Source of the DNA: Tritrichomonas musculus
Taxonomy: Eukaryota > Parabasalia > Tritrichomonadida > Tritrichomonadidae
Direction of reading: 5' to 3'
NCBI GenBank assembly: GCA_039105265.1
Contig: JAPFFF010000004.1
Coordinates: 7,607,501 to 7,671,500 of the forward strand
Length of the DNA: 64,000 nt
Part shown: positions 25,188 to 64,000 of the stretch, in pieces
Layout: each line of letters starts with the position of its first letter
Numbering within the stretch: the first letter of the stretch is position 1
The notes under the pieces: model-generated
What the model was told of the DNA's origin: nothing
Database searches by the model: none
The model's input: the letters and a program-made list of their open reading frames with translations, nothing else
Translations under genes and position numbers: made by a program

Positions 25188-25304
25188 ATAATTAAGATAT
25201 ATTGCTATAATATTTTAACAGATAGTAACAAATAAATAAAATATTAAAATAATAATTTTCACTAGGAAATAAAGATGAATTGATACATTTTTTAACTTTT
25301 TGAA

Positions 25305-32152: not shown

Positions 32153-34867
32153 TCATTTATCCATCATGATTACAAAAAATAAAGGGACCACCTTCTCATT
32201 GAACTCGAAGACGAACTTAGGCACCTCGATGACGGAAGTGATGACTTTCTCCTTCGTGACTACTTGATGATGATCGATGTGAGCAGTTGACGTGACAACC
32301 CGATCGTCGACGCCAACAGAATGATGAGTGATGTGAGCCGTTGACGTGACGGTTTGGTTGTCAACGTCAACGTTGTGGTGAGTGACGTGAGCTGTTGACG
32401 CGACAACCCGATTGTCAACGTCAACAGCATGATGAGCGACGTGAGCTGTTGACGTGACAGTCTGATTGTCAACGTCAACAGCATGATGAGCGACATGAGC
32501 TGTTGACTTGACAATCTGATTGTCAACGTCAACAGCATGATGAGCGACGTGAGCTGTTGACTTGACAGTCTGATTGTCAACGTCAACAGCGTGATTAGCG
32601 ACGTGAGCTGTTGACTTGACAATCTGATTGTCAACGTCAACAGTGTGATGAGCGACGTGAGCTGTTGACGCGACAACCCGATTGTCAACGTCAACAGTGT
32701 GATGAGCGACGTGAGCTGTTGACGCGACAACCCGATTGTCAACGTCAACAGCATGATGAGCGACGTGAGCTGTTGACGTGACAGTCTGATTGTCAACGTC
32801 AACAGCATGATGAGCGACATGAGCTGTTGACTTGACAATCTGATTGTCAACGTCAACAGTGTGATGAGCGACGTGAGCTGTTGACGCGACAACCCGATTG
32901 TCAACGTCAACAGCGTGATGAGCGACGTGAGCTGTTGACGTGACAGTCTGATTGTCAACGTCAACAGCATGATGAGCGACATGAGCTGTTGACTTGACAA
33001 TCTGATTGTCAACGTCAACAGTGTGATGAGCGACGTGAGCTGTTGACGCGACAACCCGATTGTCAACGTCAACAGCGTGATGAGCGACGTGAGCTGTTGA
33101 CGTGACAGTCTGATTGTCAACGTCAACAGCATGATGAGCGACGTGAGCTGTTGACGTGACAGTCTGATTGTCAACGTCAACAGCATGATGAGCGACATGA
33201 GCTGTTGACTTGACAATCTGATTGTCAACGTCAACAGTGTGATGAGCGACGTGAGCTGTTGACGCGACAACCCGATTGTCAACGTCAACAGCGTGATGAG
33301 CGACGTGAGCTGTTGACGCGACAACCCGATTGTCAACGTCAACAGCGTGATGAGCGACGTGAGCTGTTGACTTGACAGTCTGATTGTCAACGTCAACAGC
33401 ATGATGAGCGACATGAGCTGTTGACTTGACAATCTGATTGTCAACGTCAACAGTGTGATGAGCGACGTGAGCTGTTGACGCGACAACCCGATTGTCAACG
33501 TCAACAGCGTGATGAGCGACGTGAGCTGTTGACGCGACAACCCGATTGTCAACGTCAACAGCGTGATGAGCGACGTGAGCTGTTGACTTGACAGTCTGAT
33601 TGTCAACGTCAACAGCGTGATTAGCGACGTGAGCTGTTGACTTGACAGTCTGATTGTCAATGTCAACAGCGTGATTAGCAACAGATTCAACGTTGTGAGT
33701 ATCAGCACTCACAACATGGTTGTTCTCAAACGTGTTTGAGTCAGCAGGTTGAGAGATGGCACCAGCTGATTGACAACTAATATTAGCTGCTGAGTTTGGT
33801 GAGTAAGAATTAACAATATCACGCGTATCAATGTGCTGCGAAGAAAGGAAATAAAAGTTATTATTATTGATGTAACTCCATGACATGTGATGTGAAATGT
33901 CGGTGAAGTGAGATGTGTTGCACCCGATGTTGCATGTTCCTGAGAGAAAGAGCGAATTAACGATGTTGGACACATGCGAAACAAACGGGGAACATTTTGA
34001 GTGAAAATTGAATGGAACCGTTCGAATGCTAGACGAAGGAACGAAAGAATAGGGATCAAAAGCATTTAAACGAAGTTCTTCATCCGTTGATGGGATTGCT
34101 GGTCGATTCCTGTCGAATTTTGGTTGCTCATCGGAAATGATCAATTGTCCTCGAGCAACCAGAATTCCTTCGGATGACTTCTCATTCATATTATAAGCAA
34201 GAGGACAACGAGAAATCAATGAAGGATCGCACGTAACAACGATCCATGATGGGTTAGGAACTCCATCAGAATTCGACGGGTTATAGTGAACACCCGACTG
34301 TAAGAGCACTTCTGTCCCTCTAGAAGGATTATTTGAATTGCAGAAAATAGTTTCAGGTTCCTCAATTTCTTCATCGGAAATTGATATTGGATCACTATTA
34401 TCACTTTTTTCTGAATCTGAATTAATGTGCTCGAAATTGGTCATATCGTCATCAGGACACTTGGAAAGTGATTGTGAAGCTGGTCCAACCGGCGGGAGCC
34501 GCAGCTTCACATCATCACAAGGATATCTGCTAGTATCTTTTTTGCGGGGTGAGATTTGAGTTGCGTATCTTGTTTTATACGAGAAGTCAAGGTCGTCTAG
34601 TAGCGAATTGTCTTTGAAAAAGTCGAACTTATTGAGTTTTGGATGATGGGATATCTGTTCCCTAGAACAAGGAATCTTAAAACCTCCATCGTATTTGTTA
34701 TCGGAATGGCAATTGCTGTTGTGAATATGGGTAGGATTGTGACACCTATCGGTCATGATATCTCGATTATTAAAAAAATTTTCACCGATTTTTTCCGGAG
34801 TGGAATCAAACGAATCAGCATCTTCTGCTGATTCCAAAAATCTACTTTTCGTTGGGTAGATCAACAT
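32153..34867 (-). CDS. E1 N-terminal repeat protein (retrotransposon fragment)
   Basis: 904 residues from the ATG at 34867. Order: a diverged N-terminus with the shared ESAEDADSFDS motif, the conserved domain TEVLLQSGVHYNP...EGILVARGQ (about 180-265), a Ser/Asn-rich segment, then 26 repeats of 18 residues (pattern HHAVDVDNQTVKSTAHVA), the closing VPKFVFEFNEKVVPL and seven or so residues read from flanking DNA (FVIMMDK). It lacks all enzymatic domains. It may be expressed as a repeat-only protein, but could equally be a dead fragment. A second frame is open for 482 codons across the repeat array; it is a consequence of the 54-bp period. Confidence 0.75.
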   Translation of the reverse strand: MLIYPTKSRFLESAEDADSFDSTPEKIGENFFNNRDIMTDRCHNPTHIHNSNCHSDNKYDGGFKIPCSREQISHHPKLNKFDFFKDNSLLDDLDFSYKTRYATQISPRKKDTSRYPCDDVKLRLPPVGPASQSLSKCPDDDMTNFEHINSDSEKSDNSDPISISDEEIEEPETIFCNSNNPSRGTEVLLQSGVHYNPSNSDGVPNPSWIVVTCDPSLISRCPLAYNMNEKSSEGILVARGQLIISDEQPKFDRNRPAIPSTDEELRLNAFDPYSFVPSSSIRTVPFNFHSKCSPFVSHVSNIVNSLFLSGTCNIGCNTSHFTDISHHMSWSYINNNNFYFLSSQHIDTRDIVNSYSPNSAANISCQSAGAISQPADSNTFENNHVVSADTHNVESVANHAVDIDNQTVKSTAHVANHAVDVDNQTVKSTAHVAHHAVDVDNRVVASTAHVAHHAVDVDNRVVASTAHVAHHTVDVDNQIVKSTAHVAHHAVDVDNQTVKSTAHVAHHAVDVDNRVVASTAHVAHHAVDVDNRVVASTAHVAHHTVDVDNQIVKSTAHVAHHAVDVDNQTVTSTAHVAHHAVDVDNQTVTSTAHVAHHAVDVDNRVVASTAHVAHHTVDVDNQIVKSTAHVAHHAVDVDNQTVTSTAHVAHHAVDVDNRVVASTAHVAHHTVDVDNQIVKSTAHVAHHAVDVDNQTVTSTAHVAHHAVDVDNRVVASTAHVAHHTVDVDNRVVASTAHVAHHTVDVDNQIVKSTAHVANHAVDVDNQTVKSTAHVAHHAVDVDNQIVKSTAHVAHHAVDVDNQTVTSTAHVAHHAVDVDNRVVASTAHVTHHNVDVDNQTVTSTAHITHHSVGVDDRVVTSTAHIDHHQVVTKEKVITSVIEVPKFVFEFNEKVVPLFFVIMMDK

Positions 34868-34887
34868 ATTTGCAAAATAAAAAAAAA
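32181..34887 (-). mobile_element. Retrotransposon copy E1, truncated at its 3' side
   Basis: This copy has the element's 5' end (junction at 34888) and N-terminal coding region, then stops being similar to its relatives at about 32181-32185, in the codons after VPKFVFE-NEKVVPL. Everything downstream (zinc fingers, RT, endonuclease) is missing. Loss of the 3' part is the reverse of the usual 5' truncation of non-LTR elements and points to a deletion or recombination at the array edge. Confidence 0.8.
32270..33680 (-). repeat. 54-bp tandem array in E1, 26 units
   Basis: Each unit is 54 bases (TTGTCAACGTCAACAG core on the plus strand) and encodes 18 residues. Groups of units are repeated as higher-order blocks (RVVAS, then QIVKS, then QTVTS), showing expansion by unequal exchange. 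Confidence 0.9.
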
Positions 34888-35014
34888 TCTCCTCCCGTGT
34901 GGTAAATTCGTTTATTAATCATTAGAGTAAGTATAAAATACTAATAAACGAGAGTGATGATTCACTCACAATAAAATAAAAGGGGCGGGCCCCAATAAAA
35001 AAAAAAAAATCTGC
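34868..35014 (-). other. Junction E2 3' end / E1 5' end
   Basis: On the minus strand: the E2 stop, a GGGGCCCGCCCC stem, the hairpin GTGAGTGA-ATCA-TCACTC, a second stem CGTTTATT/AATAAACG enclosing CTTACTCTAATG, then CCACACGGGAGGAGA (34888-34902), a T tract and the E1 start codon. The A run beside the E2 end (13 A, plus view) is longer than in E4-E6 (6 A). Confidence 0.75.
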
Positions 35015-38000
35015 CTAAAATTCAGAAGAGGAGTGTTGGACTCCCTCCTCTTCGGTAGCGGAGGCAGGGTCGGCACCTTGAGTTTGGTTCCATAGTGTGG
35101 TGGTGCCTGGATTTTCCAGTACGTCATTTTCATCATCAGTAGTGTCAAGCTCAGACGGGGGGCCCGACCTGTCAACATCCGCACTTGCATCAATGAGATC
35201 CCGCCATTCTTCGTCGTCCAAGATGTTGACAGAGTTGTACTCATCGTCTGCGGACTCCCCGTCGGTAACATTGGAGCTAGTATCATTGAGATCATTAGAA
35301 TCATCGTCACCATCAGTATCAAGAACATTAACATTTTCAACATCGTTATCATAATCGTTACCATTATCGTTATCGTTATCGTTATCTTCATCTTCATTGT
35401 TGTCGTTAACCCTCTTCTTAATCTTAGTATCAATGTACAATATCATAGATTCACGTAAAGCGGCTGCTACCATCCTCCCTGCAAGTTTGAGTGCGTCTTT
35501 GGTCGTGACTGTCACTTTCTTGAGTTCATTGATGGTGTCATCGGGTATTGCACCGAGGGAGGAGACAATGAACACAAATAGAGACACATTGCAGTTCAAC
35601 TGGTTTCTGCAATCATCGACAAGCTTCTGGTATTTGTTCAACTTCTCTCTGCGTCGTATGACTAAGATAGATTCATCATCATCGCCAGATAACATTCCGT
35701 ATGGGATGGTGAATTCAGCTATCTTCAGCTGGTCACCGTCCCACCACCATACATCTGGTCTGAGAGAAGCAGAGTCACCAGTGATGTGTTCGTTGCTGCG
35801 TCCACGAACACTTTGGTTACAATGCACGATGACTCTCTTCTTTTCGGTAAGGTACTTGCAAAGTACCTTGACAACTTCGTCGTGTCTCTTTGTGAATTTG
35901 TGTTTGCACCGCTTGCACCCGTTTAAGATGTGATTGAGAGTTTCAATCTGTCCACAACGAGTGCAACGGTTACTCATTTGAGGGTTTCTGTGAGCAGCAA
36001 GTGATGCTGTCATGAGCGTATTCGTACGTGCTTTGATAGCGAATCTGACAACAGAGTCCGCCATCAAAGCATTGGGCTTCATGAAGTAGTTGCTCAATGG
36101 TGAGTTTTTCAATGTCGTGAATGTATGTCCTCTCATCTTGTGCAGACAAAGATCTGAATAGTAACGGTCACTCATGACTTTCATGATGTGTTTAACAACA
36201 TTAGAGGTGTTAACATCAAATGTGACATTACTATTCAGATCTTTGAGCGTAAACATATCATCTTTGAGTATCAGACCCATGTTAGCGTCGTGCAAAGCTT
36301 TAACACATCGGGCTAAGATGTTCGACGTCCCGCGGTTACGCTTTGCATCTAACGCACCATTGTCTTTAACTTTCAGGTGCAAGAACGGTGAAGTCAAGTC
36401 GATGGTAGCATCCCTGAAGATGATCTCGGCTTCATCAGAAGCCTTGACCATATCACGGATGCTTTTATCGTTAGACTCCATCAAGGCAATGTAGAGTCTG
36501 ATAATGAGAGCTTTCTGGCGATCTGTGAGTTTCTGTATGTAAAGACCGCCATCGTTTTTCGTCGTGTAGAACCAGGCGGTTGGAATACCAGCAGCACCGA
36601 TCATTTTGGACAGCTTGCCCCGAATGAGTTCATCTAAGCGACTGAGGCAATTTGTCGGTGCTGTGTTCGCCATCAGTTCGTAGTCAATCTTGGGAATCAC
36701 GAACCGTTTGATGGCGTCAACCGCCTGTGTGAACCGAAGAGCGCTGCCAGTAATTCGAATGACGTCCTTCGTCATGTCTTCGATTCGCCGAAAAACGTGA
36801 TGTTTACGCTGCGAAGATTTGCACGCGATTGGAAGTCCGAGATACGTTGTATTGTTCTGAATACTGATGTTATCAATACGTCCTCCAGCAATGGTGAAGT
36901 TGTCGTTCAACACACTGCGAGAACCATTGTGAGCAATGTATGTGAAAGCGTGGCACTTCTTGCAGTTGATCTTCATGTCGCCAGCATAACTGCAGAAGTG
37001 CTCCACGACCGAAAGCAAGTTCTTCATCCCGACTTCCGAGTCCGAGAACACGATGATGTCATCGGCGTAAGCTTGAACGGTTGTCGCTGAGTCCAACCAA
37101 TGATAACCGTCCTCCTTGCAAGCGTTCAACCGCGCGAGGAGAGGTTCGATACAAATGTTGAATAACGTCGGACTCAGCGGACAACCTTGCTTGACGCCTT
37201 TGCGAAAACAGATAGAATTAGATCGTCTGTTGTTGCTGATGATCTTCGTCGAAGAGTCTCTGTACGAATTAATAATCGTTTTAACAAAAGAAAGATCAAA
37301 GCCAATGTCTGTAAGATTCTTTTTAATAAGTTTATGTGGTACGGAACCAAATGCATCAGAAAAGTCGATCGTCGTGATGTAGAGTGACTTTTGGTTCCGT
37401 GCAGCATCGTGTATCATCTCATCAACCACAGTTGCATGCTCAGCCGCCCCAGCTGGAATACGCATGAATCCTTTCTGACTCGGTGATATGAACCTATGTT
37501 TTGAATTCAGCGTTTGAAGCGAGCGGCTGATGTGACACATCAGCATCCGATAAATCGTCGGAGTGATGGTGATAGGACGCCACGAATGGGCGTCGTCAGG
37601 GTCTCCTTTCTTAAACAACATGACGGTTTTGTTCATTTTCAACACCTCCGGAAAGAGACCCGTGTCAAGCATGCAACACAACTCATTCTTGATGATCGTC
37701 GCCGTGACACTCCCGCCAACCTTCTACACACCATTTGAAATGCCGTCGCATCCGACGGCAGACAGATTGGATCTCCATCTGACCGCTTTGAGAATAGCTT
37801 CTTCGTTGAGGATGAGTGATTTGAGTTCATCAGAATTATTCGATGAAATTCTACGCTGAAGAGTGTAAACACCATCTGGGTCATCCCCGAGAGCAGCAGC
37901 ATCGCTCCACGAGGACCCGTACACGTTCTCGAAATCTTCGACTGGGACGACACATTCTGGTGTGTCGTCGTTCAACACGAACCAGTCGAGTGTACGTTTG

Positions 38001-41000
38001 GCGTCTTCAGCGTAGAATTTCTGAAGGAACTTCTTGTAGCCAAGCGAGGAAGGAGAGTTGTTGAGAATCTCCAATTCCTCTAGCTTGGCACGTATGAATT
38101 TCATCCTTTCATCGTAATGCTCATCGTAAATCAAACCGTCAATTGAGTCCAAGTCACCACTCCCAAGAAGTTGAGAGAACTCCAAAGGAGCCTGTGACAG
38201 AAAGCGAACAAGCTTCTCTTTGATGTCTGCGATGACATTACGTTGAGGTTGATCGAGATCTTCATCAGTGATGTGAATGCGGGAATGCAGGAGTTCAATA
38301 CCAGCGATGAATTTGGAGGCCGACTTCATCTGAATCGGTGTCTCCAAGGAATGCGGGCGACGAATCTGATCTGAACCTCTCCGTGCCGAACGAACGAGCT
38401 TCCTAATCGACTTCCGTAGAATGAGAATGATTTCCGAAATCATCCCTTCGCAGAGAAGCATTCGGCTGCTCTTTTCCAAAGAGTCAGAGAGGTTAATAGC
38501 TTCATTATACCAATTGAGAACATCCTTGACTTCACTGTTAAACACTTCTTCGAACTTTTTCCTGTGCTTCGCTAAACGGTCACCCCACAGCTTCGGGAGG
38601 TGCACGAAATCATCATCTTCCTTCATGCACCTTGACTTCCAATTCTCAGCTTTGGACAGGCAACTCTCAATGTCCACGATCGAAGCTGACGCTGGGTGAG
38701 CCGGATGTTCATCAATTGTGTGAGTATCTTCTTCGCTAGATGAAGAGACTGAATGCAAGTGCGCCTCAGGTAGTCTCTCGTTGGCAGGTATGAACCCAGC
38801 CTGTCGTCTCCGTCTGCGTGAGTCTTCCCCGCGACGACGATCTTCCATCACTTGGAGATCCACCGATTCGTCTGCCCGAGGTTGCACTGGCATCTGTCTC
38901 TCATCATCTTGAGTGACTCTGTTCTCACTCCTCACAATCTTGATTCTCTCCAGGTCAGTGTTGGCTTCACGAATTTCATCGTCATCGGTTTCAGGCGAAA
39001 GCCAATTAACGGATATACTGATGTCGATTGCCTGAACCCGATGACCTTCAACATTGGCCTGGGGATGTGATCTGTTGGTATGCTGTTTGACTGTAGCTTT
39101 GTCTCTACCAACGAAGTCCTTGCATTTCATGCACAAGGAACCGTGCAGGTCATGGTAAACATCGCTAGCCACAAGTAATTTTCGATGTTTCTTAGCGTGC
39201 AGAATGCTCATCGCCCAGAAGACTCCAACTTCACGTTTAAGCGCTTCCATGTCCTGGTGCGATGAGCCCATGTGGCTGCTCAATGAGTTCGCTCTACTGA
39301 CCAAGTAGTCGCAGTCGCTGCACGGACAAACGTGAATGGTACGATAGTGAAAAGCGTCAGGCGGAAGGTGAGGTGAATCGATCTTCCACCTCAGCTTCCT
39401 GCCGACAATGTACTCGAACGCCGCTTGCTCCAGAGGAATATTATTCGTCGTGTGCGTCGATTTGAGGTGAAAAGACAAGGACGCACATGTGGGAAACGTT
39501 TTGTCGCAGCAAGGGCAGTAAAACTGCCCAACTCCTAACCATCTGTCTTTCTGATACATGAGGAGAATGATAGGAGTGTCAACGTCGCTAACGTTTGCGA
39601 ATGGTGAAGTGTCGATGTTTGCCACCTGCAAGATATCAATGAGAGACTTCATGTCTGTTTTGGTCTTCACACCAGCCAGTTCGCTCACGATCCAATCAAT
39701 GGAAGCATTGTCACCCACAGGTGAAGAAGGATTATCATCACTGCAACCGTGATTGTCATCATCGGAATGATCAGAGTGTTCAGAGTGAGAATGAGCATCG
39801 GTGAACTCTTCAGCACCACTAACAACGCTGCTTGTACCAGAAGAGTTACTGGTAGTTTGAGTACCTAAGGAGTTGGTTCGAGATCCGAGGAAATTATTGT
39901 TTGAGAATGTGTTAAGCAACGAATGGTTCCCAGAGAGAGTAAATAGTGGAACCACTTTCTCATTGATCTCGAACACAAACTTAGGTACCTCAATCACTGA
40001 TGTGAATAATTTCTCCTTCGTGACTACTTGATGATGATCGATGTGAGCAGTTGACGTGACAACCCGATCGTCGACGCCAACAGAATGATGCGTGATGTGA
40101 GCCGTTGACGTGACGGTTTGGTTGTCAACGTCAACGTTGTGGTGAGTGACGTGAGCTGTTGACGCGACAACCCGATCGTCGACGCCAACAGAATGATGCG
40201 TGATGTGAGCCGTTGACGTGACGGTTTGGTTGTCAACGTCAACGTTGTGGTGAGCGACGTGAGCTGTTGACTTGACAATCTGATTGTCAACATCAACAGC
40301 GTGATGAGCGACGTGAGCTGTTGACTTGACAATCTGATTGTCAACGTCAACATTATGATGTACCACGTGTGCCGTTGACGCGACAATCTGATTGTCGACG
40401 CCAACGCTATGATGAGCAACATGAGCCATTGACGCGACAACCCGATTGTCGACGTCAACGCTGTGGTGAGCTACATGAGCAGTTGACTCGACAGTCTGGT
40501 TGTCGACGTCAACGCTATGATGAACAAGATTAACATTGTTATGAGAAACATTATAGTTAGAGATATTATTATTAATGAAACTATTATTAGTGAAACTATT
40601 ACTATTATTAACATTGAACATATTGGTATTCATGACTGACATGTGATTTGAAAAGTCAGTGAAGTGATTATTGCAACCGATGTTGCACGAGAATGAGACC
40701 GCCAGCGAGTTTAATACATTGTATACATGGGAAACAAAAGGCGAACGTGGGAAGGAGCAAAAATTGAATGGAACCGCCGGAACCGTGCTCGGATGGACGA
40801 AGGTCTCAGGGAGGAGCACCTTCTGGCTGAGTTCTGCATCTGAAGCAGGTACTGCCGGGCGGTTACGGTCGAGTATTGGTTGCCCATTCGAAATGATCAT
40901 TTGTCCTCGGGCAACCAATACACCTTCAACTGACTTATCCTTTGCAAGGTAACTCAGAGGGGAACGGGCAGCCAGTGAAGGATCGCTCGTAATGACGAAC

Positions 41001-41617
41001 CATGAGGGGTTCTGACCACCCTCTGGATTTGTCGGATTATAGTGTACTCCTGACTGCAGGAGTACCTCTGTCGTCCTTTGTGTATTAGGAACTATGAGAT
41101 TTCTGGCGCAATTTGGTCGGCTCGTAGAATCACTTTGATGCGCATCTGATCTAAATTCTTCGGAATCTGAAAAGTCTGGGGAAACGTTGGAATCGCTCTG
41201 TGAGGTACTCCGTATGTTGATAGGAGCAGGTCCAACCGGCGGGTGCCGCTGCTCCGTAGGATATGAAATTCGATCTGTGAGTGAGTATTGCGCGGGAAGA
41301 TTATGAGGAACATTTGGAACATATCGAGGCTGTGTATTTGATTGAGTTGTGTTCGGGGCAAACTGGTCCCCGTTTTGGTGCGTCTTTGAATTGATCTCTC
41401 TTGAGTTGCGAGATATTGGAGAAGTAGCGATTTTGTTGTAATTTATATTGAAAGGGCTATCTACTGTATTAATTTGAGGCGAAAAACTGCGAAATTCGGG
41501 TGTTCCATTTCCATCATCATCTGAAAAATTTCCACCAAAATCATCAATTTTGGTATCAATCGAATCAGCGTCGAGTGCTAATTCGGAAAATCTAGGTTTG
41601 GTCGTGCAAAAAAGCAT
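35015..41617 (-). pseudogene. E2 R2-like polyprotein ORF interrupted by an amber codon
   Basis: The frame runs from the ATG at 41617 for 1,297 codons, meets TAG at 37724-37726 and stays open for another ~900 codons to 35015. In E4 and E5 the same position is TGG (Trp of NGVWKVGG), so a single base change separates E2 from an intact protein. The break falls just before the reverse transcriptase core; the RT (YADD), CCHC and endonuclease motifs are intact downstream. Nine 18-residue repeats are present. Unless the stop is read through or re-initiated (no ATG lies close by), E2 makes only the N-terminal and zinc-finger half. Confidence 0.88.
40030..40530 (-). repeat. 54-bp tandem array in E2, 9 units
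   Basis: Nine 18-residue units, including a duplicated pair (HHNVDVDNQTVTS then HHSVGVDDRVV-S) not present in E4/E5, so copy-number change occurred by duplication of different units in different copies. Confidence 0.88.
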
Positions 41618-41720
41618 ATATGAAAACTAAAAAAAAATCTCCTCCCGTGTGGATTGTTTATTAAAAACCATTAGAGTAAGAAAGCACGTAATCGTGCATA
41701 AAAGAAGCGTGAGTGATGGC
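41618..41720 (-). other. Junction E3 3' end / E2 5' end
   Basis: The E3 stop codon TGA lies inside the perfect 8-bp hairpin GTGAGTGA-GCCA-TCACTCAC. It is followed by a GCACG/CGTGC hairpin, the conserved CTTACTCTAATGGTT, AATAAAC and then CCACACGGGAGGAGA (41638-41652). The sequence otherwise differs from the E2-type end, so the shared elements stand out as conserved. Confidence 0.75.
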
Positions 41721-48809: not shown

Positions 48810-48954
48810 CGAATAAAATTCCTAAAAAAAAAAATCTCCTCCCGTGTGGTAAATTCGTTTATTAATCATTAGAGTAAGTATAAAATACTAATAAACGAGA
48901 GTGATGATTCACTCACAATAAAATAAAAGGGGCGGGCCCCAATAAAAAATCTGC
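48810..48954 (-). other. Junction E4 3' end / E3 5' end
   Basis: Same E2-type 3' end as at 34868-35014, then CCACACGGGAGGAGA (48835-48849), an 11-base T tract and the E3 leader. The E3 leader is unlike the E2 leader except for the T tract. Confidence 0.75.
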
Positions 48955-55665: not shown

Positions 55666-55805
55666 ATATGAAAACTAAAAAAAAATCTCCTCCCGTGTGG
55701 TAAATTCGTTTATTAATCATTAGAGTAAGTATAAAATACTAATAAACGAGAGTGATGATTCACTCACAATAAAATAAAAGGGGCGGGCCCCAATAAAAAA
55801 TCTGC
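55666..55805 (-). other. Junction E5 3' end / E4 5' end
   Basis: Identical in layout to the E6/E5 junction, with the 15-bp sequence at 55686-55700. The E4 leader between it and the ATG is only about 20 bases (T tract then AGTTTTCATAT). TCATA fits the trichomonad initiator consensus, so transcription could start here with a very short leader. Confidence 0.7.
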
Positions 55806-58800
55806 CTAAAATTCAGAAGAGGAGTGTTGGACTCCCTCCTCTTCGGTAGCGGAGGCAGGGTCGGCACCTTGAGTTTGGTTCCATAGTGGGGTGGTGCCTG
55901 GATTTTCCAGTACGTCATTTTCATCATCAGTAGTGTCAAGCTCAGACGGGGGCCCCGACCTGTCAACATCCGCACTTGCATCAATGAGTTCCCGCCATTC
56001 TTCGTCGTCCAGGATGTTGACAGAGTTGTACTCATCGTCTGCGGACTCCCCGTTGGTAACATTGGAGCTAGTATCATTGAGATCATTAGAATCATCGTCG
56101 CCATCAGTATCAAGAACATTAACATTTTCAACATCGTTATCATAATCGTTACCATTATCGTTATCGTTATCGTTATCTTCATCTTCATTGTTGTCGTTAA
56201 CCCTCTTCTTAATCTTAGTATCAATGTACAATATCATAGATTCCCGTAAAGCGGCTGCTACCATCCTCCCTGCAAGTTTGAGTGCGTCTTTGGTCGTGAC
56301 TGTCACTTTCTTGAGTTCATTGATGGTGTCATCGGGTATTGCACCGAGGGAGGAGACAATGAACACAAATAGCGACACATTGCAGTTCAACTGGTTTCTG
56401 CAATCATCGACAAGCTTCTGGTACTTGTTCAACTTCTCTCTGCGTCGTATGACTAAGGTGGATTCATCATCATCGCCAGATAACATTCCGTATGGGATGG
56501 TGAATTCAGCTATCTTCAGCTGGTCACCGTCCCACCACCATACATCTGGTCTGAGAGAAGCAGAGTCACCAGTGATGTGTTCGTTGCTGCGTCCACGAAC
56601 ACTTTGGTTACAATGCACGATGACTCTCTTCTTTTCGGTAAGGTACTTGCAAAGTACCTTGACAACTTCGTCGTGTCTCTTTGTGAATTTGTGTTTGCAC
56701 CGCTTGCACCCGTTTAAGATGTGATTGAGAGTTTCAATCTGTCCACAACGAGTGCAACGGTTACTCATTTGAGGGTTTCTGTGAGCAGCAAGTGATGCTG
56801 TCATGAGCGTATTCGTACGTGCTTTGATAGCGAATCTGACGACAGAGTCCGCCATCAAAGCATTGGGCTTCATGAAGTAGTTGCTCAATGGTGAGTTTTT
56901 CAATGTCGTGAATGTATGTCCTCTCATCTTGTGCAGACAAAGATCTGAATAGTAACGGTCACTCATGACTTTCATGATGTGTTTAACAACATTAGAGGTG
57001 TTAACATCATATGTGACATTACTATTCAGATCTTTGAGCGTAAACATATCATCTTTGAGTATCAGACCCATGTTAGCGTCGTGCAAAGCTTTAACACATC
57101 GGGCTAAGATGTTCGACGTCCCGCGGTTACGCTTTGCATCTAACGCACCATTGTCTTTAACTTTTAGGTGCAAGAACGGTGAAGTCAAGTCGATGGTAGC
57201 ATCCCTGAAGATGATCTCGGCTTCATCTGAAGCCTTGACCATATCACGGATGCTTTTATCGTTAGACTCCATCAAAGCAATGTAGAGTCTGATAGTGAGA
57301 GCTTTCTGGCGATCTGTGAGTTTCTGTATGTAAAGACCGCCATCGTTTTTCGTCGTGTAGAACCAGGCGGTTGGAATACCAGCAGCACCGATCATTTTGG
57401 ACAGCTTGCCCCGAATGAGTTCATCTAAGCGACTGAGGCAATTTGTCGGTGCTGTGTTCGCCATCAGTTCGTAGTCAATCTTGGGAATCACGAACCGTTT
57501 GATGGCGTCAACCGCTTGTGTGAACCGAAGAGCGCTGCTAGTAATTCGAATGACGTCCTTCGTCATGTCTTCGATTCGCCGAAAAACGTGATGTTTACGC
57601 TGCGAAGATTTGCACGCGATTGGAAGTCCGAGATACGTTGTATTGTTCTGAATACTGATGTTATCAATACGTCCTCCAGCAATGGTGAAGTTGTCGTTCA
57701 ACACACTGCGAGAACCATTGTGAGCAATGTATGTGAAAGCGTGGCACTTCTTGCAGTTGATCTTCATGTCGCCAGCATAACTGCAGAAGTGCTCCACGAC
57801 CGAAAGCAAGTTCTTCATCCCGACTTCCGAGTCCGAGAACACGATTATGTCATCGGCGTAAGCTTGAACGGTTGTCGCTGAGTCCAACCAATGATAACCG
57901 TCCTCCTTGCAAGCGTTCAACCGCGCGAGGAGAGGTTCGATACAAATGTTGAATAACGTCGGACTCAGCGGACAACCTTGCTTGACGCCTTTGCGAAAAC
58001 AGATAGAATTAGATCGTCTGTTGTTGCTGATGATCTTCGTCGAAGAGTCTCTGTACGAATTAATAATCGTTTTAACAAAAGAAAGACCAAAGCCAATGTC
58101 TGTAAGATTCTTTTTAATAAGTTTATGTGGTACGGAACCAAATGCATCAGAAAAGTCGATCGTCGTGATGTAGAGTGACTTTTGGTTCCGTGCAGCATCG
58201 TGTATCATCTCATCAACCACAGTTGCATGCTCAGCCGCCCCAGCTGGAATACGCATGAATCCTTTCTGACTCGGTGATATGAACCTATGTTTTGAATTCA
58301 GCGTTTGAAGCGAGCGGCTGATGTGACACATCAGCATCCGATAAATCGTCGGAGTGATGGTGATAGGACGCCACGAATGGGCGTCGTCCGGGTCTCCTTT
58401 CTTAAACAACATGACGGTTTTGTTCATTTTCAACACCTCCGGAAAGAGACCAGTGTCAAGCATGCAACACAACACATTCTTGATGATCGTCGCCGTGACA
58501 CACCCGCCAACCTTCCACACACCATTTGAAATGCCGTCGCATCCGACGGCAGACAGATTGGATCTCGATCTGACCGCTTTGAGAATAGCTTCTTCGTTGA
58601 GGATGAGTGATTTGAGTTCATCAGAATTATTCGATGAAATTCTACGCTGAAGAGTGTAAACACCATCTGGGTCATCCCCGAGAGCAGCAGCATCGCTCCA
58701 CGAGGACCCGTACACGTTCTCGAAATCTTCGACTGGGACGACACATTCCGGTGTGTCGTCGTTCAACACGAACCAGTCGAGTGTACGTTTGGCGTCTTCA

Positions 58801-61800
58801 GCGTAGAATTTCTGAAGGAACTTCTTGTAGCCAAGCGAGGAAGGAGAGTTGTTGAGAATCTCCAATTCCTCTAGCTTGGCGCGTATGAATTTCATCCTTT
58901 CATCGTAATGCTCATCGTAAATCAAACCGTCAATTGAGTCCAAGTCACCACTCCCAAGAAGTTGAGAGAACTCCAAAGGAGCCTGTGACAGAAAGCGAAC
59001 AAGCTTCTCTTTGATGTCTGCGATGACATTACGTTGAGGTTGATCGAGATCATCATCAGTGATGTGAATGCGGGAATGCAGGAGTTCAATACCAGCGATG
59101 AATTTGGAGGCCGACTTCATCTGAATCGGTGTCTCCAAGGAATGCGGGCGACGAATCTTATCTGAACCTCTCCGTGCCGAACGAACGAACTTCCTAATCG
59201 ACTTCCGTAGAATGAGAATGATTTTCGAAATCATCCCTTCGCAGAGAAGCATTCGGCTGTTCTTTTCCAAAGAGTCAGAGAGGTTAATAGCTTCATTATA
59301 CCAATTGAGAACATCCTTGACTTCACTGTTAAACACTTCTTCGAACTTTTTCCTGTGCTTCGCTAAACGGTCACCCCACAGCTTCGGGAGGTGCACGAAA
59401 TCATCATCTTCCTTCATGCACCTCGACTTCCAATTCTCAGCTTTGGACAGGCAACTCTCAATGTCCACGATCGAAGCTGACGCTGGGTGAGCCGGATGTT
59501 CATCAATTGTGTGAGTATCTTCTTCGCTAGATGAAGAGACTGAATGCAAGTGCGCCTCAGGCAGTCTCTCGTTGGCAGGTATGAACCCAGCCTGTCGTCT
59601 CCGTCTGCGTGAGTCTTCCCCGCGACGACGATCTTCCATCACTTGGAGATCCACCGATTCGTCTGCCCGAGGTTGCACTGGCATCTGTCTCTCATCATCT
59701 TGAGTGACTCTGTTCTCACTCCTCACAATCTTGATTCTCTCCAGGTCAGTGTTGGCTTCACGAATTTCATCGTCATCGGTTTCAGGCGAAAGCCAATTAA
59801 CGGATATACTGATGTCGATTGCCTGAACCCGATGACCTTCAACATTGGCCTGGGGATGTGATCTGTTGGTATGCTGTTTGACTGTAGCTTTGTCTCTACC
59901 AACGAAGTCCTTGCATTTCATGCACAAGGAACCGTGCAGGTCATGGTAAACATCGCTAGCCACAAGTAATTTCCGATGTTTCTTAGCGTGCAGAATGCTC
60001 ATCGCCCAGAAGACTCCAACTTCACGTTTAAGCGCTTCCATGTCCTGGTGCGATGAGCCCATGTGGCTGCTCAATGAGTTCGCTCTGCTGACCAAGTAGT
60101 CGCAGTCGCTGCACGGACAAACGTGAATGGTACGATAGTGAAAAGCGTCAGGCGGAAGGTGAGGTGAATCGATCTTCCACCTCAGCTTCCTGCCGACAAT
60201 GTACTCGAACGCCGCTTGCTCCAGAGGAATATTATTCGTCGTGTGCGTCGATTTGAGGTGAAAAGACAAGGACGCACATGTGGGAAACGTTTTGTCGCAG
60301 CAAGGGCAGTAAAACTGCCCAACTCCTAACCATCTGTCTTTCTGATACATGAGGAGAATGATAGGAGTGTCAACGTCGCTAACGTTTGCGAATGGTGAAG
60401 TGTCGATGTTTGCCACCTGCAAGATATCAATGAGAGACTTCATGTCTGTTTTGGTCTTCACACCAGCCAGTTCGCTCACGATCCAATCAATGGAAACATT
60501 GTCACCCACAGGTGAAGAAGGATTATCATCACTACCACCGTGATTGTCATCATCGGAATGATCAGAGTGTTCAGAGTGAGAATGAGCATCGGTGAACTCT
60601 TCAGCACCACTAACAACGCTGCTTGTACCAGAAGAGTTACTGGTAGTTTGAGTACCTAAGGAGTTGGTTCGAGATCCGAGAAAATTATTGTTTGAGAATG
60701 TGTTAAGCAACGAATGGTTCCCAGAGAGAGTAAATAGTGGAACCACTTTCTCATTGATCTCGAACACAAACTTAGGTACCTCAATCACTGATGTGAATAA
60801 TTTCTCCTTCGTGACTACTTGATGATGATCGATGTGAGCAGTTGACGTGACAACCCGATCGTCGACGCCAACAGAATGGTGCGTGATGTGAGCCGTTGAC
60901 GTGACGGTTTGGTTGTCAACGTCAACGTTGTGGTGAGTGACGTGAGCTGTTGACGCGACAACCCGATTGTCAACGTCAACAGCGTGATGAGCGACGTGAG
61001 CTGTTGACTTGACAATCTGATTGTCAACGTCAACAGCGTGATGAGCGACGTGGGCTGTTGACTTGACAATCTGATTGTCAACGTCAACAGCGTGATTAGC
61101 AACGTGAGCTGTTGACTTGACAGTCTGATAGTCAACGTCAACAGCGTGATGAGCGACGTGGGCTGTTGACTTGACAGTCTGATAGTCAACGTCAACAGCG
61201 TGATTAGCAACGTGGGCTGTTGACTTGACAATCTGATTGTCAACGTCAACATTATGATGTACCACGTGTGCCGTTGACGCGACAATCTGATTGTCGACGT
61301 CAACGCTATGATGAGCAACATGAGCCATTGACGCGACAACCCGATTGTCGACGTCAACGCTGTGGTGAGCTACATGAGCAGTTGACTCGACAGTCTGGTT
61401 GTCGACGTCAACGCTATGATGAACAAGATTAACATTGTTATGAGAAACATTATAGTTAGAGATATTATTATTAATGAAACTATTATTAGTGAAACTATTA
61501 CTATTATTAACATTGAACATATTGGTATTCATGACTGACATGTGATTTGAAAAGTCGGTGAAGTGATTATTGCAACCGATGTTGCACGAGAATGAGACCG
61601 CCAGCGAGTTTAATACATTATATACATGGGAAACAAAAGGCGAACGTGGGAAGGAGCAAAAATTGAATGGAACCGCCGGAACCGTGCTCGGATGGACGAA
61701 GGTCTCAGGGAGGAGCACCTTCTGGCTGAGTTCTGCATCTGAAGCAGGTACTGCCGGGCGGTTTCGGTCGAGTATTGGTTGCCCATTCGAAATGATCATT

Positions 61801-62516
61801 TGTCCTCGGGCAACCAATACACCTTCAACTGACTTATCCTTTGCAAGGTAACTCAGAGGGGAACGGGAAGCCAGTGAAGGATCGCTCGTAATGACGAACC
61901 AAGAGGGGTTCTGACCACCCTCTGGATTCGTCGGATTATAGTGTACTCCTGACTGCAGGAGTACCTCTGTCGTCCTTTGTGTATTAGGAACTATGAGATT
62001 TCTGGCGCAATTTGGTCGGCTCGTAAAATCACTTTGATGCGCATCTGATCTAAATTCTTCGGAATCTGAAAAGTCTGGGGAAACGTTGGAATCGCTCTGT
62101 GAGGTACTCCGTATGTTGATAGGAGCAGGTCCAACCGGCGGGTGCCGCTGCTCCGTAGGATATGAAATTCGATCTGTGAGTGAGTATTGCGCGGGAAGAT
62201 TATGAGGAACATTTGGAACATATCGAGGCTGTGTATTTGATTGAGTTGTGTTCGGGGCAAACTGGTCCCCGTTTTGGTGCGTCTTTGAATTGATCTCTCT
62301 TGAGTTGCGAGATATTGGAGAAGTAGCGAGTTTGTTGTAATTTATATTGAAAGGGCTATCTACTGTACTAATTTGAGGCGAAAAACTGCGAAATTCGGGT
62401 GTTCCATTTCCATCATCATCAGAAAAATTTCCACCAAAATCATCAATTTTGGTATCAATCGAATCAGCGTCGAGTGCTAATTCGGAAAATCTAGGTTTGG
62501 TCGTGCAAAAAAGCAT
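55806..62516 (-). CDS. E5 R2/NeSL-type retrotransposon polyprotein
   Basis: 2,236 residues with the same domain order and motifs as E4. I noticed eight residue differences from E4, among them SSRML/NSRML, DEDLDQ/DDDLDQ, GGSVTA/GGCVTA, GFDLSF/GFGLSF, CQHK/CLHK, CKNQ/CRNQ, TDGES/TNGES and DDETD/DDEND. None touches a catalytic motif. The near-identity dates the E4/E5/E6 expansion as recent, or shows ongoing gene conversion. Confidence 0.93.
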   Translation of the reverse strand: MLFCTTKPRFSELALDADSIDTKIDDFGGNFSDDDGNGTPEFRSFSPQISTVDSPFNINYNKLATSPISRNSREINSKTHQNGDQFAPNTTQSNTQPRYVPNVPHNLPAQYSLTDRISYPTEQRHPPVGPAPINIRSTSQSDSNVSPDFSDSEEFRSDAHQSDFTSRPNCARNLIVPNTQRTTEVLLQSGVHYNPTNPEGGQNPSWFVITSDPSLASRSPLSYLAKDKSVEGVLVARGQMIISNGQPILDRNRPAVPASDAELSQKVLLPETFVHPSTVPAVPFNFCSFPRSPFVSHVYNVLNSLAVSFSCNIGCNNHFTDFSNHMSVMNTNMFNVNNSNSFTNNSFINNNISNYNVSHNNVNLVHHSVDVDNQTVESTAHVAHHSVDVDNRVVASMAHVAHHSVDVDNQIVASTAHVVHHNVDVDNQIVKSTAHVANHAVDVDYQTVKSTAHVAHHAVDVDYQTVKSTAHVANHAVDVDNQIVKSTAHVAHHAVDVDNQIVKSTAHVAHHAVDVDNRVVASTAHVTHHNVDVDNQTVTSTAHITHHSVGVDDRVVTSTAHIDHHQVVTKEKLFTSVIEVPKFVFEINEKVVPLFTLSGNHSLLNTFSNNNFLGSRTNSLGTQTTSNSSGTSSVVSGAEEFTDAHSHSEHSDHSDDDNHGGSDDNPSSPVGDNVSIDWIVSELAGVKTKTDMKSLIDILQVANIDTSPFANVSDVDTPIILLMYQKDRWLGVGQFYCPCCDKTFPTCASLSFHLKSTHTTNNIPLEQAAFEYIVGRKLRWKIDSPHLPPDAFHYRTIHVCPCSDCDYLVSRANSLSSHMGSSHQDMEALKREVGVFWAMSILHAKKHRKLLVASDVYHDLHGSLCMKCKDFVGRDKATVKQHTNRSHPQANVEGHRVQAIDISISVNWLSPETDDDEIREANTDLERIKIVRSENRVTQDDERQMPVQPRADESVDLQVMEDRRRGEDSRRRRRQAGFIPANERLPEAHLHSVSSSSEEDTHTIDEHPAHPASASIVDIESCLSKAENWKSRCMKEDDDFVHLPKLWGDRLAKHRKKFEEVFNSEVKDVLNWYNEAINLSDSLEKNSRMLLCEGMISKIILILRKSIRKFVRSARRGSDKIRRPHSLETPIQMKSASKFIAGIELLHSRIHITDDDLDQPQRNVIADIKEKLVRFLSQAPLEFSQLLGSGDLDSIDGLIYDEHYDERMKFIRAKLEELEILNNSPSSLGYKKFLQKFYAEDAKRTLDWFVLNDDTPECVVPVEDFENVYGSSWSDAAALGDDPDGVYTLQRRISSNNSDELKSLILNEEAILKAVRSRSNLSAVGCDGISNGVWKVGGCVTATIIKNVLCCMLDTGLFPEVLKMNKTVMLFKKGDPDDAHSWRPITITPTIYRMLMCHISRSLQTLNSKHRFISPSQKGFMRIPAGAAEHATVVDEMIHDAARNQKSLYITTIDFSDAFGSVPHKLIKKNLTDIGFGLSFVKTIINSYRDSSTKIISNNRRSNSICFRKGVKQGCPLSPTLFNICIEPLLARLNACKEDGYHWLDSATTVQAYADDIIVFSDSEVGMKNLLSVVEHFCSYAGDMKINCKKCHAFTYIAHNGSRSVLNDNFTIAGGRIDNISIQNNTTYLGLPIACKSSQRKHHVFRRIEDMTKDVIRITSSALRFTQAVDAIKRFVIPKIDYELMANTAPTNCLSRLDELIRGKLSKMIGAAGIPTAWFYTTKNDGGLYIQKLTDRQKALTIRLYIALMESNDKSIRDMVKASDEAEIIFRDATIDLTSPFLHLKVKDNGALDAKRNRGTSNILARCVKALHDANMGLILKDDMFTLKDLNSNVTYDVNTSNVVKHIMKVMSDRYYSDLCLHKMRGHTFTTLKNSPLSNYFMKPNALMADSVVRFAIKARTNTLMTASLAAHRNPQMSNRCTRCGQIETLNHILNGCKRCKHKFTKRHDEVVKVLCKYLTEKKRVIVHCNQSVRGRSNEHITGDSASLRPDVWWWDGDQLKIAEFTIPYGMLSGDDDESTLVIRRREKLNKYQKLVDDCRNQLNCNVSLFVFIVSSLGAIPDDTINELKKVTVTTKDALKLAGRMVAAALRESMILYIDTKIKKRVNDNNEDEDNDNDNDNGNDYDNDVENVNVLDTDGDDDSNDLNDTSSNVTNGESADDEYNSVNILDDEEWRELIDASADVDRSGPPSELDTTDDENDVLENPGTTPLWNQTQGADPASATEEEGVQHSSSEF
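60831..61425 (-). repeat. 54-bp tandem array in E5, 11 units
   Basis: Same eleven units in the same order as in E4, unlike the nine of E2 and 26 of E1. Confidence 0.88.
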
Positions 62517-62656
62517 ATATGAAAACTAAAAAAAAATCTCCTCCCGTGTGGTAAATTCGTTTATTAATCATTAGAGTAAGTATAAAATACTAATAAACGA
62601 GAGTGATGATTCACTCACAATAAAATAAAAGGGGCGGGCCCCAATAAAAAATCTGC
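62517..62656 (-). other. Junction E6 3' end / E5 5' end
   Basis: 15-bp junction sequence at 62537-62551; the order of stems and T tract is the same as at 55666-55805. Confidence 0.75.
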
Positions 62657-64000
62657 CTAAAATTCAGAAGAGGAGTGTTGGACTCCCTCCTCTTCGGTAG
62701 CGGAGGCAGGGTCGGCACCTTGAGTTTGGTTCCATAGTGGGGTGGTGCCTGGATTTTCCAGTACGTCATTTTCATCATCAGTAGTGTCAAGCTCAGACGG
62801 GGGCCCCGACCTGTCAACATCCGCACTTGCATCAATGAGTTCCCGCCATTCTTCGTCGTCCAGGATGTTGACAGAGTTGTACTCATCGTCTGCGGACTCC
62901 CCGTTGGTAACATTGGAGCTAGTATCATTGAGATCATTAGAATCATCGTCGCCATCAGTATCAAGAACATTAACATTTTCAACATCGTTATCATAATCGT
63001 TACCATTATCGTTATCGTTATCGTTATCTTCATCTTCATTGTTGTCGTTAACCCTCTTCTTAATCTTAGTATCAATGTACAATATCATAGATTCCCGTAA
63101 AGCGGCTGCTACCATCCTCCCTGCAAGTTTGAGTGCGTCTTTGGTCGTGACTGTCACTTTCTTGAGTTCATTGATGGTGTCATCGGGTATTGCACCGAGG
63201 GAGGAGACAATGAACACAAATAGCGACACATTGCAGTTCAACTGGTTTCTGCAATCATCGACAAGCTTCTGGTACTTGTTCAACTTCTCTCTGCGTCGTA
63301 TGACTAAGGTGGATTCATCATCATCGCCAGATAACATTCCGTATGGGATGGTGAATTCAGCTATCTTCAGCTGGTCACCGTCCCACCACCATACATCTGG
63401 TCTGAGAGAAGCAGAGTCACCAGTGATGTGTTCGTTGCTGCGTCCACGAACACTTTGGTTACAATGCACGATGACTCTCTTCTTTTCGGTAAGGTACTTG
63501 CAAAGTACCTTGACAACTTCGTCGTGTCTCTTTGTGAATTTGTGTTTGCACCGCTTGCACCCGTTTAAGATGTGATTGAGAGTTTCAATCTGTCCACAAC
63601 GAGTGCAACGGTTACTCATTTGAGGGTTTCTGTGAGCAGCAAGTGATGCTGTCATGAGCGTATTCGTACGTGCTTTGATAGCGAATCTGACGACAGAGTC
63701 CGCCATCAAAGCATTGGGCTTCATGAAGTAGTTGCTCAATGGTGAGTTTTTCAATGTCGTGAATGTATGTCCTCTCATCTTGTGCAGACAAAGATCTGAA
63801 TAGTAACGGTCACTCATGACTTTCATGATGTGTTTAACAACATTAGAGGTGTTAACATCATATGTGACATTACTATTCAGATCTTTGAGCGTAAACATAT
63901 CATCTTTGAGTATCAGACCCATGTTAGCGTCGTGCAAAGCTTTAACACATCGGGCTAAGATGTTCGACGTCCCGCGGTTACGCTTTGCATCTAACGCACC
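62537..64000 (-). mobile_element. Retrotransposon copy E6, continues beyond the window
   Basis: 3' part of a sixth unit in the same register (6,851 bp after E5). The array therefore extends further to the right. Confidence 0.9.
62657..64000 (-). CDS. E6 polyprotein, C-terminal 447 residues (partial)
   Basis: The frame is open from the window edge to the stop at 62657. It contains the end of the RT-to-CCHC connector, the CCHC motif, the restriction-like endonuclease and the acidic tail. It shares with E5 the variants TNGES and DDEND that distinguish both from E4. Confidence 0.9.
   Translation of the reverse strand, partial: GALDAKRNRGTSNILARCVKALHDANMGLILKDDMFTLKDLNSNVTYDVNTSNVVKHIMKVMSDRYYSDLCLHKMRGHTFTTLKNSPLSNYFMKPNALMADSVVRFAIKARTNTLMTASLAAHRNPQMSNRCTRCGQIETLNHILNGCKRCKHKFTKRHDEVVKVLCKYLTEKKRVIVHCNQSVRGRSNEHITGDSASLRPDVWWWDGDQLKIAEFTIPYGMLSGDDDESTLVIRRREKLNKYQKLVDDCRNQLNCNVSLFVFIVSSLGAIPDDTINELKKVTVTTKDALKLAGRMVAAALRESMILYIDTKIKKRVNDNNEDEDNDNDNDNGNDYDNDVENVNVLDTDGDDDSNDLNDTSSNVTNGESADDEYNSVNILDDEEWRELIDASADVDRSGPPSELDTTDDENDVLENPGTTPLWNQTQGADPASATEEEGVQHSSSEF

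What the first reader, a model, noticed from the sequence alone, without database searches (positions are those of the whole stretch)
32181..64000. Heterotypic head-to-tail array of R2-type retrotransposons sharing one junction sequence
At least six elements from three families (E1; E2/E4/E5/E6; E3) stand end to end, all on one strand, with no host DNA between them. Each of the five junctions carries the same 15 bp (TCTCCTCCCGTGTGG, plus view) followed by an A tract. Tandem duplication by unequal exchange would explain E4-E6, but not the clean placing of the diverged E3 and E1 between E2-type copies. Inference: these elements insert at a fixed site that is regenerated by each insertion, probably their own terminus, making a self-stacking array. 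Giardia Genie elements form comparable head-to-tail arrays.
Basis: partly seen in the sequence, partly recalled or inferred. Interest (0 to 1): 0.88.

Follow-up and report, generated by a model that had tools for sequence, protein, structure and literature searches.

The report
Retrotransposons stacked behind tRNA-Asn genes
In what is very probably the mouse gut protist Tritrichomonas musculus, jumping genes insert at one exact spot in asparagine-tRNA genes and leave the tRNA gene whole, so that new copies pile up behind it in long head-to-tail stacks.

Summary
In detail: six head-to-tail elements share five identical 15-bp junctions. The 15 bp is not the elements' own terminus. It is the 3' end of a tRNA-Asn(GTT) gene, and the 'A tract' is that gene's T-run. 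The window's array runs on 12.6 kb past the window's right edge to a whole tRNA-Asn gene.

Genome-wide, 56 tRNA-Asn genes match a pattern. Of 36 read, 22 are whole and directly followed by an element, 13 are empty, and one is split by a 95-bp 5'-truncated copy exactly at the inferred nick. Of 53 checkable A/B-type 3' ends, 52 abut the tRNA fragment. Arrays mix ~7-kb R2-like elements with non-coding 0.86-1.1-kb units.

Best model: target-primed insertion in the tRNA T-loop with a duplication that restores the tRNA, so copies stack. Block duplications also occur. Age order is only partly supported (7 to 9 of 10 arrays, by how they are counted). tRNA-specific elements of this type and U2-anchored arrays are in print, so this is a new variant of a known kind.

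The parts
62552..64000 (-).
55701..62551 (-). A-type element u3 with its upstream 15-mer (62537-62551); intact frame 55806-62516, 2236 aa
48850..55700 (-). A-type element u4 with its upstream 15-mer (55686-55700); intact frame 48955-55665; 17 differences from u3 in 6851 bp
41653..48849 (-).
34903..41652 (-). A-type element u6 with its upstream 15-mer (41638-41652); frame interrupted (37724-41617 and 35015-37681)
32177..34902 (-).
62537..62551 (-). tRNA-Asn 3' fragment X: in element sense CCACACGGGAGGAGA followed by T9
55686..55700 (-). tRNA-Asn 3' fragment X
48835..48849 (-). tRNA-Asn 3' fragment X
41638..41652 (-). tRNA-Asn 3' fragment X
34888..34902 (-). tRNA-Asn 3' fragment X
32213..33754 (-). 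54-bp (18-aa) in-frame tandem repeat in the N-terminal half of the u7 frame; homologous repeats with other copy numbers lie in the other A/B units

Best explanation
The array is a stack of tRNA-Asn-specific, R2-like retrotransposons with a restriction-like endonuclease (RLE), mixed elsewhere with short non-coding units. Shown by sequence: element 3' ends abut the tRNA fragment X, which starts at C60; whole tRNA-Asn genes with their T-run stand directly upstream of elements; empty genes exist; one 5'-truncated copy splits a tRNA gene exactly at T59|C60. [quoted passage not shown] the top strand is cut about 15-24 nt downstream, in or behind the T-run, so X is duplicated. The upstream X completes the tRNA gene and the downstream X stays behind the element. 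Because the tRNA gene is whole again, the next element of any family can insert there and pushes older ones outward. Copies near the tRNA should then on average be younger, and X copies are fossils of the tRNA 3' end. Unequal exchange additionally duplicates blocks.
For: X is the 3' end of tRNA-Asn(GTT). Of 36 tRNA-Asn genes read out of 56 found, 22 are whole and directly followed by an element start, and ARAGORN calls all 22 as tRNA-Asn. L076: tRNA up to T59 joined to the last 95 bp of a C-type element (1 mismatch), then X. 52 of 53 checkable A/B 3' ends are directly followed by X. The 15-mer occurs 241 times in the genome, reversed control 0. In the window's array the two outermost units are the damaged ones. 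X variants: non-standard ones all lie outside the standard ones in 9 of 10 mixed arrays (P 3.6e-6) or 7 of 10 when counted strictly (P 7e-4). At least 20 copies besides the query have a 2203-2329-aa frame without stops and 98-100% identity in the matched stretches. An independent metagenome contig repeats 3' end - X - different neighbour.
Against: 7 of 59 checkable RT copies lack a listed X at the expected downstream distance, 10 of 59 lack it upstream, and one of them (C18) has no listed X on either side; one A/B 3' end (C1:898252) is not followed by a listed X. Order exceptions: C14 minus (variant-standard-variant); C14 plus if its own tRNA variant is counted; C27 minus if it belongs to the tRNA 49.8 kb away. 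The P values assume independent junctions, which block duplications violate. Block duplications (C1, C58) show that insertion is not the only array-builder. X order does not by itself exclude insertion at inner X copies. No reads, transcripts or enzyme assays were available; the exact 5' boundary inside the T-run is ambiguous.
Confidence: 0.85

Rival explanations
1. Insertion at any X: the protein recognises mainly the X and T-run side, so inner junctions (older element's 3' end plus X) are targets too. It can act alongside insertion at the tRNA.
For: An inner insertion gives exactly the same junctions and keeps the order of X variants, so searches do not exclude it.
Against: Whole tRNA-Asn genes stand at the head of 22 of 36 genes read, so insertion at the tRNA itself certainly occurs; nothing found here requires inner insertion.
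Confidence: 0.25
2. Few founding insertions and many unequal exchanges: most array members are block duplicates.
For: u3 and u4 have the same length and are 99.75% identical; identical 873- and 889-bp units recur in the C1 array; RT copies on C58 repeat at 25,226 and 22,976 bp.
Against: It does not explain occupied tRNA genes on many contigs by different element types (A, B, C and two short families) nor mixed orders within arrays.
Confidence: 0.1
3. Assembly artefact of repeats.
For: Repetitive arrays are hard to assemble; no reads were available here.
Against: The same exact junction recurs on many contigs and in an independently assembled metagenome contig (L078).
Confidence: 0.02

Closest known systems
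NeSL-1_TV (tRNA-Pro), LIN15_SM (tRNA-Arg), LIN25_SM (tRNA-Glu); PMC4640811, phylogeny section read
   Same: RLE non-LTR elements specific for one kind of tRNA gene; the name NeSL-1_TV suggests Trichomonas vaginalis, also a parabasalid (my reading of the abbreviation).
   Different: Other tRNAs. The parts I read (passages, first of three parts of the Results, phylogeny section) describe no stacks for them; the supplement was not seen.
Utopia in U2 snRNA genes (PMC4640811, passages and first part of the Results read)
   Same: RLE elements of several families in arrays at a small RNA gene; elements followed by a fragment of the gene, intact genes in front; 20-bp duplications in reptile families; occasional tandem insertion in Nasonia.
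   Different: U2, not tRNA; low copy number in Phytophthora (most abundant family 14 copies); the authors explain intact U2 genes upstream mainly by deletion and leave duplication open.
R2 of 28S rRNA genes
   Same: Closest solved proteins; zinc fingers, RT, CCHC, PD..E order.
   Different: Target is a tRNA gene; much longer N-terminal region with an 18-aa repeat.
Dictyostelium TRE elements (listing and passages)
   Same: Non-LTR elements that use tRNA genes as safe sites.
   Different: They insert near tRNA genes (about 50 bp upstream for TRE5-A, about 100 bp downstream for others), not at one nucleotide inside the gene; their clade (L1-like) is recalled.
Giardia GilM/GilT and Drosophila HeT-A/TART arrays (passages of PMC10088271; Giardia array layout recalled)
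   Same: Head-to-tail non-LTR arrays.
   Different: Telomeric; here at tRNA-Asn genes, in the cases located well inside contigs.

Membership tests
RLE-encoding non-LTR retrotransposons (R2/NeSL grade) | LINE-type reverse transcriptase | tested here: met
   RVT_1 E 2.2e-34 (u3), 4.3e-31 (u5); R2 solved structures E 9.4e-54
RLE-encoding non-LTR retrotransposons (R2/NeSL grade) | C-terminal CCHC motif and PD..D/E endonuclease motif | tested here: met
   C1921, C1924, H1932, C1937, P1990, D1991, E2004 invariant in 12 of 12 aligned relatives; phmmer aligns 1867-2093 to the same region of R2. Motif meaning is recalled; no structure was predicted
RLE-encoding non-LTR retrotransposons (R2/NeSL grade) | N-terminal C2H2 zinc fingers | tested here: met
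   C800/C805/H818/H823 and C865/C868/H882/H887 invariant in 12 of 12; a first finger with C737 and H753 invariant
R2 sensu stricto | insertion in 28S rRNA genes | tested here: not met
   52 of 53 checkable A/B 3' ends abut the tRNA-Asn fragment
NeSL clade | grouping with NeSL/Utopia/R5 in an RT tree | not tested
   no named NeSL or NeSL-1_TV sequence was available to me; no tree was built
Telomeric arrays (Giardia GilM/GilT type) | location at chromosome ends | tested here: not met
   arrays at 5.2 of 11.4 Mb (C1), 5.05 of 9.0 Mb (C3), 7.6 of 8.4 Mb (C4); some arrays lie on small contigs where this cannot be judged
Non-autonomous partners (SINE-like) | no coding capacity, termini shared with the autonomous element | tested here: inconclusive
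   22 distinct units of 861-1106 bp, longest open stretch 141 aa, ~72% identity to long units only over the first ~100 bp, AATAAAC near the 3' end; mobilisation by the long elements is inferred

The most novel reading that the evidence does not exclude
The elements carry the tRNA 3' end, or at least the T-run, in their own RNA, for example from a tRNA-element co-transcript cut by tRNase Z, and an insertion can overwrite the host gene's last 14 nt with the element's copy. The tRNA gene would be promoter, target and repaired product at once, and the X copies of a stack a record of that gene's history. Hints: empty genes ending GGGAAGAGA have T6 then G, while the three occupied ones with that ending have T9-T10 and then the element; acceptor chimeras (T3 with G70) occur in 3 of 6 occupied T3 genes, two of which look like a duplicate pair, and in 0 of 11 empty ones (p 0.03, or 0.08 without the duplicate); one array reads variant-standard-variant. 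Gene conversion among tRNA genes is not excluded.
Probability: 0.3. Interest if true: 0.8.

Novelty: new variant of a known kind. Interest (0 to 1): 0.62.

Why it matters
It shows a retroelement that appears to use essential tRNA genes as landing sites again and again without destroying them, and that builds long stacks of mixed families. Such stacks could allow relative dating of insertions and of changes in the target gene. They also offer a natural set of RLE enzymes with an exact target in a conserved RNA gene, of interest for targeted DNA insertion. Intact U2 genes in front of Utopia elements, which their authors explained mainly by deletion, might have the same cause; that becomes testable.

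Tried and rejected
Own-terminus target: rejected, since X is the 3' end of tRNA-Asn and is present in empty genes. Telomeric array: rejected by position for the arrays on large contigs. Ribozyme or other known RNA at the element ends: Rfam with E up to 1 over 30000-64000 gave only miRNA-family matches, far below their gathering scores; those in the outputs lie in the 54-bp-repeat stretches. ARAGORN finds no whole tRNA in the window. Relatives by DNA scan: none in viral contigs, one in genome contigs, in a bacterial bin (L078).

Literature: searches (open-licence PubMed Central, no preprints; result lists partly capped) showed me no report of tRNA-Asn-specific elements or of such stacks in Tritrichomonas. 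Trichomonas and Tritrichomonas genome papers were seen as listings only. PMC5035012, PMC10088271, PMC5006619 and PMC2861651 were seen as passages.

Limits: only 100 of 241 15-mers, 100 of 114 A/B 3' ends and 100 of 132 RT motifs were listed, so 53 3' ends and 59 RT copies could be judged; X variants other than the three patterns searched were not seen. 36 of 56 tRNA-Asn genes were read. Left out of these counts: the second C14 plus block (taken as a duplicate), C58 and the C28 array at 1.915 Mb (standard junctions not listed), and arrays with one X state only. C58 has variant junctions at repeated places and would not fit a simple order.
Full report
What is in the window. Five exact copies of a 15-mer stand between head-to-tail units on the minus strand, from about 32177 to the right edge. 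Units are 6.75-7.2 kb, apart from the truncated one, and carry a long reading frame with a LINE-type reverse transcriptase. The frame is intact in u3, u4 and u5, and also in u1 and u2, which reach beyond the window; it is interrupted in u6; u7 has lost its 3' part. Across 12 relatives, 21-54% identical to the u3 protein, two full C2H2 zinc fingers, one C and one H of a third, RT core residues, a CCHC motif and PD..E are invariant. The nearest solved proteins are R2 proteins.

What the 15-mer is. In element sense it reads CCACACGGGAGGAGA and is followed in nearly every copy read by 8-11 T (one has 22). In the own genome (193.4 Mb, 746 contigs) it occurs 241 times, against none for the reversed control. 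At several places it is preceded not by an element 3' end but by the rest of a tRNA-Asn(GTT) gene. By standard tRNA numbering (my assignment) the junction lies between T59 and C60 in the T-loop, inside the B box; the fragment X is C60 to the discriminator base plus one base, and the T-run looks like an ordinary pol III terminator. The window's own array reaches such a tRNA gene at C4:7684135-7684210, 12.6 kb beyond the window.

Sites with and without elements. A pattern search with up to 3 mismatches found 56 tRNA-Asn genes. I could read 36: 22 are directly followed by an element start, one is split, 13 are empty. The other 20 were not read for want of letters. All 22 are still called as tRNA-Asn by ARAGORN; the split one and one degenerate empty one (L074) are not. 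The split one (L076) joins the tRNA up to T59 to the last 95 bp of a C-type element (1 mismatch, shared GAT at the joint) and then X, as expected for a 5'-truncated target-primed insertion. Genes with C3 in the acceptor stem are occupied or split in 17 of 19 cases, genes with T3 in 6 of 17 (p 0.001).

Strictness. Of 53 A/B-type 3' ends in the fully listed part of the genome, 52 are directly followed by a listed X variant. Of 59 RT motifs there, 52 have X 2.04-2.20 kb downstream and 49 have X 4.5-5.5 kb upstream. The misses may be X variants that I did not search, or copies elsewhere; one RT copy (C18) has no listed X on either side. A protein search scored 21 candidates; besides the query itself, 20 copies have frames of 2203-2329 aa without stops and 98-100% identity in their best stretch, so the population looks young.

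Array anatomy. Laid out from the tRNA outwards, arrays are runs of about 7-kb units with RT and of 0.86-1.1-kb units without. In the loci held, 22 distinct short units of 861-1106 bp have no open stretch above 141 aa, share about 72% identity with long units over the first ~100 bp only, and end in an AATAAAC-containing tail. The 3' ends of A/B and C fold far better than shuffles (z -4.3, -4.6), the short families' less so (z -2.1, -2.6, -1.1). One 1329-bp unit has a B-type 5' part and a short-family 3' end.

Order in time. If each insertion leaves a copy of the tRNA 3' end behind, X variants record that gene's history. In 9 of 10 arrays with more than one variant the non-standard ones all lie outside the standard ones (P 3.6e-6). 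Counted strictly, with the C14 plus head variant included and C27 minus joined to the tRNA 49.8 kb away, it is 7 of 10 (P 7e-4); gap-free arrays give 5 of 6, P 0.004. These values assume independent junctions, which duplications violate. In the window's array the two outermost units are the damaged ones. Block duplications are equally plain: identical units recur on C1, and RT copies on C58 repeat at 25,226 and 22,976 bp. Both processes act.

Mechanism. Shown: the site, the common orientation, the whole tRNA gene beside elements, a truncated insertion at the nick. Inferred: bottom-strand nick at T59|C60, target-primed reverse transcription, top-strand cut in or behind the T-run, duplication of X. 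At least part of the T-run seems to come with the element: empty genes ending GGGAAGAGA have T6 then G, while the three occupied ones with that ending have T9-T10. How the RNA 5' end arises is open, and insertion at inner X copies is not excluded.

Host. Contig lengths given for Tritrichomonas musculus proteins (8390746, 9756398, 3818690, 2238950, 5773586) equal those of C4, C2, C14, C27 and C10, so the assembly is very probably that parabasalid. An independent metagenome contig shows the same 3' end, X and T8 with a different neighbour.

Known relatives. PMC4640811 (passages, first part of the Results, phylogeny section) reports RLE elements specific for tRNA-Pro, tRNA-Arg and tRNA-Glu genes, and Utopia arrays on U2 genes with intact U2 genes in front. 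The kind is therefore known. What I did not find reported (searches, open-licence library only) are the tRNA-Asn target, the restored tRNA gene, the scale, the short units and the ordered X variants.

Noticed in passing
32213-33754 and the homologous stretches of the other A/B units: A 54-bp (18-aa) in-frame tandem repeat lies in the N-terminal half of the element frame, with copy number differing between units; its His-rich translation triggers a chance Pfam match.
   Followed up: partly
proteins P0030, P0033, P0035, P0044 and P0029, P0039, P0040: Relatives from metagenomes carry an N-terminal ubiquitin-hydrolase (PF00443) or Myb-type (PF00249) domain besides the RT; their insertion sites could not be read.
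   Followed up: no
L078 (CAMWTP010000157.1) and P0040: A retrotransposon contig close to this one sits in a Lachnospiraceae metagenome bin, and a relative carries a Helicobacter typhlonius label: protist sequence in bacterial records.
   Followed up: partly
C5:5556533-5595597 and C14:2104196-2259054 of the own genome: tRNA-Asn genes are clustered there on both strands, many with elements, which looks like large inverted and direct duplications.
   Followed up: partly
L037 (C3 array head), 1329-bp unit: A unit with a B-type 5' part and a short-family 3' end, as from template switching or recombination.
   Followed up: no
tRNA-Asn genes with C3 versus T3 in the acceptor stem: Two gene kinds differ in occupancy: 17 of 19 against 6 of 17. 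Whether the enzyme prefers one or arrays multiplied with it is unknown.
   Followed up: partly
window 1180-4167 and 10536-16445: Host genes left of the array: a Sel1-repeat protein kinase and a HECT ubiquitin ligase.
   Followed up: no
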